Below are positions 11,859 to 47,623 of a stretch of DNA of 47,630 nt, piece by piece. Source of the stretch: Elusimicrobiota bacterium (GTDB lineage Bacteria; Elusimicrobiota; Elusimicrobia; Elusimicrobiales; UBA9959); NCBI GenBank assembly GCA_012517285.1, contig JAAYVG010000002.1, positions 1 to 47,630 on the forward strand. The letters run 5' to 3'. The first letter of the stretch is position 1. Each line of letters begins with the position of its first letter. The notes under the pieces are model-generated. The model searched no databases. It was given only the letters and a program-made list of their open reading frames with translations, and was not told the origin of the DNA. Both the position numbers and the translations under genes were made by a program.

Positions 11859-12053
11859 TTTTTTAGTTTAAAAAAACTTTTCTCATAGGGGAATTTTAGA
11901 AACACCACTTTTTCATGGGCACTACATTTTCTTGATTATGTAAGTTGTCAACCGCCACTCCCGCCTAATAAGTTTATATATCTACCCGCTTCATAGCTTA
12001 TTCTGGAAGATAAACCATATCTTATCTTTTTAACCTTATCAAATAAAATACTC
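11859..12053. repeat. 195-bp dispersed repeat, copy A
   Basis: This stretch matches 47429-47623 almost base for base in the same orientation, and similarity stops abruptly at both ends in both places. It lies between the thiolase and glgP. Read on the minus strand it contains the decayed version of a small reading frame that is open in the other copy: a T is missing in CTACCCGC (CTTACCCGC in copy B), which shifts the frame. It has no clear terminal inverted repeats. It may be the end of a mobile gene or a non-coding element. Confidence 0.8.
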
Positions 12054-19280: not shown

Positions 19281-19489
19281 ACTCGCCTCTCATACCTAAA
19301 ATTATTAAACAGCTATAACTAAATTATATAATTTTATTCACATCATATTTAAACATGGTTCACCAGCGTATTTAATCCGTCTACATACTGATGAATCTGT
19401 TTAGATCTTGATTACATCAGTTTTCATCTCGATGAATCTGTTTACATCTTGATGATTAAATAATCAGATAACTTTTTCAGTGACCCAAT
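19281..19489. other. Intergenic segment with a 23-bp near-direct repeat and a solo MITE-like end
   Basis: Between deoC and the antiporter gene. A 23-base unit, GATGAATCTGTTTAGATCTTGAT (shown by its first and last bases at 19390 and 19412), recurs at 19431-19453 with one mismatch. At 19470-19486, just after the antiporter stop codon, lies AACTTTTTCAGTGACCC, the reverse complement of a sequence close to the terminal repeat of the two MITEs in this window. No partner end is near, so it looks like a remnant or a related element's scar. Confidence 0.5.
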
Positions 19490-22355: not shown

Positions 22356-22413
22356 CTTTTTTAGATCATAAAAAGTCCAATATATGTTATGAACCCTTAC
22401 AAGAGTTAAATAT

Positions 22414-22588
22414 GGTTCACTGAAAAAGTCTATTTGAGCAGATTTATTGCCAAAAGAAAGACAAAAAAAGTGCAAGGTTTTTGCAATATTACCCTAAAAA
22501 TTGTGCACTTTTAAAACAATAATTTACTATAATCAAGACAATTATTCATTGAAAAAATTATCTTTCGTTAGACTTTTTCAGTGAACCC
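22414..22588. mobile_element. MITE copy 1 (175 bp) with 7-bp target-site duplication
   Basis: Non-autonomous element bounded by inverted ends GGTTCACTGAAAAAGTCTA and the near-complement TTAGACTTTTTCAGTGAACCC. It is flanked by a perfect 7-bp direct repeat TAAATAT (22407-22413 and 22589-22595), the scar of transposition. The left end lacks one G that the other copy has. An internal hairpin pairs AAAAGTGCA (22466-22474) with TGCACTTTT (22504-22512). There is no transposase inside. It lies just upstream of the broken methyltransferase gene. Confidence 0.92.
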
Positions 22589-22642
22589 TAAATATGTTAG
22601 AATCAAAAGAAGATCGTAGATAAAAGGATAAATGAATTATAT

Positions 22643-23406
22643 ATGGAAGTTATTGGTAAAGATAATAAAGATTCAAAAGTATTTCATCTAATACGGCTTA
22701 TGGTAAACAATAAAAGCGTTATATCTGAAAATATAAAGAAATATCCAAAGAAAAAAGGTCTTACTGATTTAATGAAATAAACAAAGAATTCCTACCGATA
22801 ATAAAAGAAAAAATAGGCTTCGACGCAGGCAGGCCTGCCTGCGTCGAAGCGACTTCGGCAGGCAGGGATGAATTATTCAAAGGTGCGACATTTTAAATTA
22901 TCGAACAAAAAGATGAAAGCATAAATTATAAAAGCGAAATTTTAAAATTACCTTATATTTTTAAGGATTTAATAAAATTTAGCAGGAAAATTGACCCCAA
23001 AAAATTAAAATTTGGCTCAAAAATTGATTCTACAAACAGCGAAAGAATTGATTTGTATTCTGTAAAACAAGTTATAAATCCAGGCAAAGTATTGCTAAGT
23101 AATGGTTTGGTAGTCAAATTGATTGGGGTTAAAGTAAAAAATGAAATGCTGAATGAGGCAACCGAGTTTCTGCAATCTAAATTAAAAAACCAGCGAGTTT
23201 TTATTAAATTTGATAATGTGAAATACGACAATGAGAATAACTTACTTTGCTACTTATATCTACAAAATAAAACTTTTATCAATGCCCATTTGATAAAAAA
23301 TAAATTGGTTGATGTTGATGATAGTTTTAATTATAAATACAAAACAAAATTTTTAAATTTAATACCGAAGGAGAATAAATTCCCTAAGGGGAAGGTACAA
23401 CAATAA
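22643..23406 (+). pseudogene. DNA methyltransferase pseudogene (C-terminal part, SNase-like tail)
   Basis: A 45-residue frame (22643-22780, with HLIRLMVNNKSVISENI and KKGLTDLM) continues in another frame as NEINKEFLPIIKEKIGFD, is then interrupted by a palindromic repeat (22817-22866), reads DELFKGATF up to a TAA at 22894, and then stays open through KLPYIFKDLIKF and SRKIDPKKLKFGS to 23406. The last ~100 residues (VKLIGVKV, FIKFDNVKYD, NLLCYLYL, FINAHLIKN) resemble the SNase-like tail found on some type II DNA methyltransferases. Catalytic motifs (DPPY, FxGxG) are not present. Its position directly before a restriction-endonuclease remnant supports a modification gene. I infer the family from general resemblance, so the methyltransferase call is moderate; the broken state is clear. 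Confidence 0.55.
22817..22850. repeat. Perfect 34-bp GC-rich palindrome
   Basis: The 17-base arm GCTTCGACGCAGGCAGG is followed directly by its exact complement. It is followed by GACTTCGGCAGGCAGG, which carries part of the arm again. The high G+C contrasts sharply with the surrounding AT-rich sequence, and it sits inside the broken methyltransferase frame. A related palindrome with the same CTTCGGC core is at 47397-47413. It looks like a mobile palindromic unit (REP-like). Confidence 0.9.
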
Positions 23407-40561: not shown

Positions 40562-40649
40562 GAGCTTAAAAGAATAAACAAATGTGAAATTTTAACCATG
40601 ATCAGTTGGTGGGGATTTGTTGTTTTTTATTAACCTTAATCTTAACCTA

Positions 40650-40926
40650 GGGTTCACTGAAAAAGTCTATTTGAACAATAAAACAAGGATTTTCGTTATG
40701 AGGCAAGGAAGAACGAGCGAGCATACTACAAAGTAGTCTGTAAGCAAGTTCTGACGAAGCCGTAGTAGAAAAGCATTGAGTTTATTGCCAAAAGAAAGAT
40801 AAGAAAAGTGCAAGGTTTTTGCAAGATTACCCCAAAAATCGTGCACTTTTAAAGCAATGATACACTATAATCAAGATAACTATTCATTTGGAAAATTATC
40901 TTTCGTTAGAGTTTTTCAGTGAACCC
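40650..40926. mobile_element. MITE copy 2 (277 bp) with 7-bp target-site duplication
   Basis: Ends GGGTTCACTGAAAAAGTCT and the near-complement AGTTTTTCAGTGAACCC are flanked by a perfect 7-bp direct repeat TAACCTA (40643-40649 and 40927-40933). The right ~150 bases match MITE copy 1 closely, including the TTTATTGCCAAAAGAAAGA and GTGCA hairpin core. It carries about 100 extra bases (40669-40776 region) that copy 1 lacks. Its right end lies inside a host gene. No transposase is encoded. Confidence 0.92.
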
Positions 40927-41409
40927 TAACCTATTCAAATCAGTAACCATTATATCGTTTATAAGTTTATTAGCAAAGTTTTCATTGATAAACTCCTCTG
41001 CTTGTTTTTTATCAATATTACTGAAATAAAACCGTCTTGCAAAACTGACTTTGTCAGGGGAGGGAAATCCACAATCAGTTATTATATTTTTAACACTTTC
41101 GCCAACAACATCTGTTATTCCATCTTTAAACCATACATCAACTGAAAAGTCATAACGGGATAATAGATCCAGTTGTTTAGCACCATAAAACTTATTGTTC
41201 AATCTATATACCTCAACAATAGGATCTATGAGTATCTCATCAGCTATTCTTTTAAAATAATTAATATTTTTATTCACTGATATTCTGTATATTTTTGAAA
41301 ATTTTATCTCAGTGTTTTTGGATAAAGCATTTTTTAAAAAGTTAGAAAACTTTTCACTCTCATTGTCAAACTCATCCTTAGTAAATATCTCTACCAAATT
41401 ATTAATCAT
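40906..41409 (-). CDS. Tandem PurS-like protein, C-terminus rewritten by a MITE
   Basis: 167 residues. Segments match the PurS-like N-terminal part of the long (about 990-residue) phosphoribosylformylglycinamidine synthases as I recall them: IADEILIDPIVEVY, RYDFSVDVWFKDGITDVVGES, and EFINENFANKLINDIMV. It therefore contains two PurS-type domains but no PurL catalytic part. The last six residues (GFTEKL) and the stop are MITE sequence. Removing the MITE and one target repeat lets the frame continue 17 codons to a TAA, with unconserved residues, so the pre-insertion protein was also short. It may be a stand-alone PurS, or a fragment of an old purL. Confidence 0.6.
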   Translation of the reverse strand: MINNLVEIFTKDEFDNESEKFSNFLKNALSKNTEIKFSKIYRISVNKNINYFKRIADEILIDPIVEVYRLNNKFYGAKQLDLLSRYDFSVDVWFKDGITDVVGESVKNIITDCGFPSPDKVSFARRFYFSNIDKKQAEEFINENFANKLINDIMVTDLNRLGFTEKL

Positions 41410-47232: not shown

Positions 47233-47428
47233 TTTCTAATTCCTTTATATTTCAATCAATGACACAATAAAATAGGGGACACTGAAAAAGTTATTTGGTT
47301 GTTTAGTTATTTACTAAAACATAAAGATTAAGTCAGATGACAGAAAACAGAAGAATAAAAAAAATCACTATTTATCTGACATCTGACCCTGCCTACGCCG
47401 AAGCGGCTTCGGCACCCGACTTCCGCAT
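47233..47428. other. Repeat-rich intergenic stretch without a gene
   Basis: This stretch holds: GGGGACACTGAAAAAGTT at 47275-47292, similar to the MITE ends but with no partner nearby; a 12-bp imperfect inverted repeat GTCAGATGACAG (47332-47343) and CTGACATCTGAC (47376-47387); and a 17-base palindrome GCCGAAGC-G-GCTTCGGC (47397-47413). No coding frame is convincing. Confidence 0.55.
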
Positions 47429-47623
47429 TTTTTTAGTTAAAAAAACTTTTCTCATAGGGGAATTTTAGAAACACCCTTTTTTCATGGGCACTACATTTTC
47501 TTGATTATGTAAGGCGTCAACTGCCACTCCCGCCTCATAAGTTTATATATCTTACCCGCTTCTTGGCTTATTCTGGAAGGTAAACCATATCTTATCTTTT
47601 TTACTTTATCAAATAAAATACTC
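47429..47623. repeat. 195-bp dispersed repeat, copy B
   Basis: Second copy of the repeat at 11859-12053, same orientation, differing at few bases. On the minus strand it holds an open frame from the window edge to a TAG at 47491-47493 whose last 45 residues include FDKVKKIRYGLPSRI, GKIYKLMRREWQL and TPYIIKKM. Copy A preserves the same peptide apart from a one-base shift. I do not recognise the peptide; a transposase or mobile-gene end is one possibility. Confidence 0.75.

What the first reader, a model, noticed from the sequence alone, without database searches (positions are those of the whole stretch)
22407..22595. MITE family with perfect 7-bp target duplications (copy 1)
A 175-bp element with complementary ends related to GGGTTCACTGAAAAAGTC is bounded by TAAATAT on both sides. 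A second copy (40650-40926) has its own, different 7-bp duplication, so both are true transposition events, not chance repeats. Neither encodes a transposase, so a full-length relative elsewhere in the genome must move them. The one-G loss at the left end suggests this copy may be older. Internal AAAAGTGCA/TGCACTTTT hairpin is shared.
Basis: seen in the sequence. Interest (0 to 1): 0.6.

Follow-up and report, generated by a model that had tools for sequence, protein, structure and literature searches.

The report
Jumping DNA scraps lacking own enzyme
The stretch is one of several dozen copies of a short "parasitic" DNA element in an uncultured Elusimicrobia bacterium; it is the shrunken remains of an IS5-type jumping gene whose enzyme was not found in this genome, while relatives that still carry the enzyme turn up in neighbouring species.

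Summary
Window 22413-22588 is a 176-bp element without an ORF; 40650-40926 is a 277-bp sister. They belong to a swarm: 99 TIR ends at up to one mismatch in the host assembly, none for the reversed pattern. The duplication is not a fixed 7 bp: of 35 paired elements with clean ends, 17 have an exact 6-bp and 3 an exact 7-bp repeat, target TANN(N)TA, against 3.5 expected from mixed pairs. Copy 1 reads better as a 6-bp repeat, TAAATA, with its first base G changed to T; a lost G with a 7-bp repeat cannot be excluded. Copy 1 lacks a 103-bp palindromic module that copy 2 keeps. The "full-length relative elsewhere in the genome" was not found: the assembly has no IS5_1 transposase hit and one unrelated DDE gene. 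Partners exist in other Elusimicrobiota: IS5-type (NCBIfam NF033578) elements of about 1.6 kb with the same ends. Verdict: a real, apparently orphaned, IS5-derived MITE swarm; a new member of a known kind.

The parts
22407..22412 (+). left target-site duplication of copy 1, TAAATA
22413..22588 (+). copy 1: 176-bp MITE (type A lacking the central module); first base T where the family has G
22413..22430 (+). left terminal inverted repeat of copy 1
22466..22512 (+). subterminal hairpin AAAAGTGCA...TGCACTTTT; TGCA pair at 82-118 counted from the right end
22571..22588 (-). right terminal inverted repeat of copy 1 (the end matching the IS 5' end by hairpin distance)
22589..22594 (+). right target-site duplication of copy 1, TAAATA (a further T follows at 22595)
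40643..40649 (+). left target-site duplication of copy 2, TAACCTA (7 bp)
40650..40926 (+). copy 2: full 277-bp type A MITE
40678..40780 (+). central palindromic module (GAGCATAC...GTCTGT), missing from copy 1
40804..40850 (+). subterminal hairpin of copy 2
40927..40933 (+). right target-site duplication of copy 2, TAACCTA
19470..19487 (-). lone TIR-like end (2 mismatches), no partner found nearby
47275..47292 (+). lone TIR-like end GGGGACACTGAAAAAGTT (1 mismatch), no partner in the window

Best explanation
Copy 1 is a non-autonomous IS derivative (MITE). It keeps what a DDE transposase needs in cis, two 18-bp ends and a palindromic leader about 80-118 bp from one end, and has lost the transposase gene. 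A transposase of the IS5-type group NF033578, supplied in trans, cut it out (inferred) and joined it to a TANN(N)TA site, leaving a 6- or 7-bp duplication (shown for the family). Copy 1 later lost the central palindrome by deletion (inferred from alignment with full copies). In autonomous relatives the same palindrome is the leader of the transposase gene, so the MITE is the 5' end of such an IS joined to a 3' end (shown by position and sequence; the event itself is inferred). The partner enzyme is missing from this assembly, so the swarm is probably inactive now or depends on an enzyme not assembled.
For: Swarm, ends and TSDs. Same ends plus TANNTA duplications, no ORF, in Elusimicrobia UBA9634, a Flavobacteriales and a Lentisphaeria genome. 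Transposase genes inside such ends: IS317 (327 bits to NF033578, cut-off 275), IS318 (325), IS319 (323), G175:C233 (328), frameshifted Flavobacteriales L303 (TATATA flank, GGGTTCACTGAAAAAGTT), N-terminal part in G338 (TATTTA|GGGTTCACTGAGAAAAG), Omnitrophota L297 (511 bits, TSD TATATA, ends GTCGATGCTGAAAAA). D179, D383, E432 are invariant in the 6 aligned transposases (reading them as the DDE triad is mine). Hairpin position: TGCA pair starts at 79-82 and ends at 116-119 in IS317, IS318, IS319, G175, L303, the deleted L341 and G338, and, counted from one end, at 82-118/119 in all 20 type-A-related copies among the 30 own elements scanned; 3 of 20,000 shuffles of five of these ISs place it so. 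Start codon 22-30 bases after the pair in IS317, IS318, IS319 and G338. Covariation, 13 further pair types against 7.7 in shuffles. UBA9634 MITE interior against IS317 5' end, TIRs removed: 70% over 102 bp, E 3e-13.
Against: No transposase of this group in the host assembly, so mobilisation in this genome is not shown. The type A interior resembles the known ISs only at the hairpin (best E 4e-4); its own parent IS was not found. Some ISs lack a clean direct duplication: IS317 TATCTA/TAGCTA; IS318 TAAGTA and deleted L341 TAATTTA are followed by inverted rather than direct copies; G175 TAGTTA/TGGTTA. 15 of 35 clean own pairs have no exact TSD. Two hairpin pairs, 10 and 12 from the outside, are broken in 10 of 17 rows each. 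Not all own types keep the TGCA pair: of 30 elements scanned, six (C15, C44a, C44b, C37, C10, C19) lack it, and C32b has it at 48-83 / 167-202.
Confidence: 0.85

Rival explanations
1. The elements are moved by a transposase of another family that happens to use similar ends, for instance the single DDE gene at C6:62 kb (weakly IS4-like, with a 132-aa upstream ORF).
For: It is the only DDE_Tnp_1 hit in the host assembly.
Against: Its flanks hold no such ends, and no match to NF033578 was reported for it. Where these ends bound a transposase gene, the gene was NF033578-like, or ISNCY_1-like with different ends GTTGCTCCTG.
Confidence: 0.07
2. The repeats spread as palindromic sequence units by recombination or replication slippage, and the flanking repeats are chance in AT-rich DNA.
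For: The DNA is AT-rich; the central hairpin tip is exchanged between copies in all four combinations with a flanking site.
Against: 20 of 35 pairs have exact 6/7-bp repeats against 3.5 expected from mixed flanks, P 6e-12; ends stop sharply at the TIRs; similar TSDs in other phyla.
Confidence: 0.03
3. An autonomous copy is present in the strain but missing from the draft assembly (97% complete, 52 contigs). This concerns only the whereabouts of the enzyme and can be true together with the best explanation.
For: Copies are 3-9% diverged and many TSDs are intact, so activity is not ancient; the assembly breaks inside MITEs.
Against: All 12 contig-end TIRs are accounted for by MITE halves in balanced numbers (my count); no fragment of the transposase was found.
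Confidence: 0.3

Closest known systems
IS5-family transposase group NF033578 (NCBIfam transpos_IS5_1) elements, seen here in Elusimicrobiota, Omnitrophota and Flavobacteriales
   Same: Same 18-bp end pattern, TANNTA flanks and palindromic leader at 80-118 bp
   Different: They carry a transposase of about 460-480 aa; the window copies carry none
IS5-linked MITEs of Porphyromonas gingivalis (BrickBuilt, MITE239, MITEPgRS; PMC4596501, passages read)
   Same: Short, non-coding, TIRs shared with IS5-family elements, no transposase remnant
   Different: Other TIRs (GAGACC...), TSDs reported as varying in length and sequence, BrickBuilt with a 23-nt minisatellite; full IS copies are in the same genome
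Palindromic-leader control of IS transposases (IS10, IS50; recalled, no call)
   Same: A hairpin in front of the transposase start codon
   Different: Not tested here; the hairpin is also kept in elements without a gene, and at a fixed distance from the end

Membership tests
MITE | short (under about 500 bp), no transposase ORF | tested here: met
   176 and 277 bp, no ORF of 80 aa or more lying inside
MITE | terminal inverted repeats | tested here: met
   18-bp ends, 0-1 mismatches
MITE | target-site duplications | tested here: met
   20 of 35 clean pairs exact, 3.5 expected
MITE | multiple dispersed copies | tested here: met
   99 ends; 19 copies over 260 or more of 277 bp
MITE | autonomous partner with the same ends in the same genome | tested here: not met
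   none in the assembly; partners in other genomes. Orphan MITEs are known as a kind (recalled), so I do not count this as defining.
IS5 family, group NF033578 | NF033578-type DDE transposase in the element | tested here: not met
   window elements non-coding; so filed as derivatives, not as IS members
IS5 family, group NF033578 | ends and leader of the group | tested here: met
   TIR pattern, and TGCA pair at 82-118 as in the ISs
IS5 family (classic groups) | TSD of 2-4 or 8-9 bp according to group (lengths recalled, no call) | tested here: not met
   6-7 bp TANN(N)TA here

The most novel reading that the evidence does not exclude
The TGCA palindrome at a fixed distance from the end is a cis site for transposition, a subterminal binding site for transposase or a host factor, doubling as the leader of the transposase gene. 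It defines a cross-phylum clade of TANNTA-targeting IS5-type elements whose MITE swarms outlive the enzyme in some hosts. The 10-bp (about one helical turn) shift of the site in the Omnitrophota IS fits DNA binding rather than RNA alone.
Probability: 0.35. Interest if true: 0.5.

Novelty: new member of a known kind. Interest (0 to 1): 0.35.

Why it matters
It shows that MITE swarms with the same ends and the same TANNTA target sit in Elusimicrobiota, Bacteroidota and Lentisphaeria genomes, and names the transposase group behind them. The palindrome kept by coding and non-coding elements at one fixed distance gives a concrete, testable cis element. A genome full of MITEs with no enzyme found is a case for asking how long such families last after their source is lost.

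Tried and rejected
Rejected: constant 7-bp TSD; resident transposase at C6:62 kb as the mover; Firmicutes and other elements with GGGNNCACTGAAAAAGTC ends and 8-9-bp repeats as the same family (L171, L193 among others); copy 1 as clearly older. Led nowhere: Rfam at gathering threshold on 5 sources found only two tRNAs; the sister genome G001 matches the neighbouring gene (68% identity, ending at the gene) and a 68-bp stretch elsewhere, so no empty site for copy 1; viral contigs gave 2 loci; literature searches for TANNTA, IS5 MITEs, leader hairpins and Elusimicrobia ISs showed no description of this family in the listings or the passages that I read; only a licence-limited library was searched. 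The classic IS5 TSD lengths and IS10/IS50 leader control are recalled. Counting choices: one search used 36 of the 46 pairings and kept one pair with a 3-mismatch end that had a TSD while dropping others with such ends; one search repeats it on 46, 43 and 35 pairs with the same outcome. The hairpin count used 17 hand-picked rows whose arms I aligned on the TGCA core; Lentisphaeria and Algoriphagus elements, which lack that core, were left out, so it leans towards the structure. Elements named IS317 and so on are my labels after locus numbers (G175:C233 is L372, G338 is L323).

Full report
What is there. Its sister at 40650-40926 is 277 bp, bounded by TAACCTA. They align over copy-2 bases 2-28 and 132-277: copy 1 lacks the 103-bp centre, 40678-40780.

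A swarm, not two copies. The host assembly (1.96 Mb, 52 contigs, 97% complete) has 99 ends at up to one mismatch and none for the reversed pattern. Copy 2 finds 46 BLAST matches, 19 near full length. Pairing ends gives 46 pairings; of 35 with both ends at 2 or fewer mismatches and no alternative pairing, 17 have an exact 6-bp and 3 an exact 7-bp direct repeat, 3.5 expected from mixed pairs, P 6e-12. The repeats are TAAATA, TATTTA, AATTTA, TACTTA, TAAGTA, TAGTTA, and TAACCTA, TATAATA, AGAAATA (TAACTTA there belongs to a pair with a poorer end), so the target is roughly TANN(N)TA. Copy 1 therefore most simply has a 6-bp repeat and a G-to-T change at base 1. The alternative (lost G, 7-bp repeat) gains some weight because another copy with a left-end T, C40:15381, also has T after its right repeat; a third copy with a T at one end, C43:3064, has no matching flanks.

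Several types share the ends: A (277 bp), B (about 300 bp, read from contig ends), C (306-346 bp, GGGGGCACTG), a 591-bp element with another MITE nested in it, and short forms of 106-204 bp.

Host. The loci of family f1 include records named Elusimicrobia: G010 shares contig length and position with CALEIX010000321, and G136 shares coordinates with UBA9634, G041. So the host is an Elusimicrobiota member; its species is not told.

Distribution. 22 of 340 Elusimicrobiota genomes have at least one TANNTA-GGGNNYRCTGAAAAAGNC site at up to one mismatch; the host has 72, UBA9634 49, G010 13, G346 11, the sister species G001 none. Outside the phylum, the Flavobacteriales genome G042 has 53 and the Lentisphaeria genome G047 57 under a similar pattern at up to two mismatches, reversed control 0. 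Elements of about 220-340 bp with direct 6-bp repeats are found there.

The mover. The host has one DDE_Tnp_1 gene, not bounded by these ends, and no NF033578 match. The first links were L303 (Flavobacteriales: end GGGTTCACTGAAAAAGTT after TATATA, frameshifted transposase) and L297 (Omnitrophota: 1457 bp, TSD TATATA, 511 bits to NF033578). In the phylum, 88 of 340 genomes match NF033578 but only 4 exceed its cut-off. Of the five genes over the cut-off in those four genomes, L317, L318, L319 and G175:C233 have these ends; for the fifth, L316 (G175:C156, running off its contig), no such end was found. L320, with ends GTTGCTCCTGAAAAAGTC and TSD TAGATA, scores best to ISNCY_1 and lacks the hairpin. 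Direct duplications are clean in L320 and L297; L319 has the self-complementary TACGTA; L317 and G175 differ by one letter; L318 and L341 have inverted flanks, which I cannot explain.

The hairpin. In the ISs a palindrome AAA(A)STGCAMGG...CCSTGCASTTT lies in front of the transposase start (codon at 139-149 from the end in L317, L318, L319, G338). Its TGCA pair begins at 79-82 and ends at 116-119 in seven elements that carry transposase sequence (L317, L318, L319, G175:C233, L303, L341, G338), and at 70-106 in L297. In the host's type A copies, window copies included, the pair is at 82-118/119 from the right end; in types C3, C44c and D at 80-116/117; six of 30 scanned elements lack it and one has it elsewhere. 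It folds (z -2.2 to -4.9) and covaries, mostly at the fifth pair, CG/GC/UA/AU. The UBA9634 MITE is 70% identical to the L317 IS over 102 bp inside the TIR. So the MITE is the IS leader plus both ends, without the gene.

The centre. The module missing from copy 1 folds as one long imperfect hairpin (z -2.6), recurs in types B and C, and was not seen in the IS ends printed. Its tip is either ATACTACAAAGTAGTCTG (14 copies) or CCCGATATATCGGGG (5 copies), in all four combinations with a nearby variable site, so tips have been exchanged or replaced repeatedly. Loss of the module in copy 1 and in C43:3064 has different junctions, hence separate deletions.

Shown and inferred. Shown: swarm, ends, TSDs, missing gene, partner genes with the same ends and leader in relatives. 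Inferred: excision and integration by that transposase, a cis role of the palindrome, loss of the enzyme in this host.

Novelty. Non-coding IS5-linked elements are known (PMC4596501, passages). The TANN(N)TA target, the fixed-distance leader and the partner group were not met in the papers that I could search, which is weak evidence because the library is partial. A new member of a known kind, modest interest.

Noticed in passing
L307:1438-1956, L308, L324, L326-L340, L342-L344: 52 of 59 family-f1 Elusimicrobiota genomes match NF033578; apart from a few complete or other transposases the match is a short ORF (typically 165-195 aa) covering only the N-terminal part (about model 8-130). A thymidine-kinase motif lies beside it in 19 of 19 f1 loci checked. 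It looks like a domesticated transposase DNA-binding domain; no match in the host and its sister species.
   Followed up: partly
copy 2 module 40678-40780; L075, L080, L084, L086, L089, L108: A palindrome CCCGATNNATCGGGG, flanked by (G/A)AGC and TA(A/G)C, replaces different parts of different MITE types, as if hairpin tips were exchangeable units.
   Followed up: partly
22817-22866: GC-rich palindrome with CTTCGGCAGGCAGG, found 17 times in the 313 kb of own stretches scanned, also inside MITE types B and C and in G345/G346 MITEs.
   Followed up: partly
11859-12053 and 47428-47623: A 195-bp repeat, 93% identical, upstream of a glycogen-phosphorylase-like gene and at the window end; not one of these MITEs.
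   Followed up: no
L109:2000-2198 (C46:29999-30197): A 199-bp element with the TGCA pair at 82-118 from both ends: two 5'-type ends (types C and A) sharing one hairpin.
   Followed up: no
L318, L341: IS flanks are inverted rather than direct copies (TAAGTA/TACTTA; TAATTTA/TAAATTA).
   Followed up: no
L089:1891-2481: A 591-bp element with a second MITE with other ends (GGGTCACT...) nested inside, holding the same kind of palindromic module twice.
   Followed up: no
L121: Only DDE_Tnp_1 gene of the host: 429-aa weakly IS4-like transposase with a 132-aa ORF upstream.
   Followed up: partly
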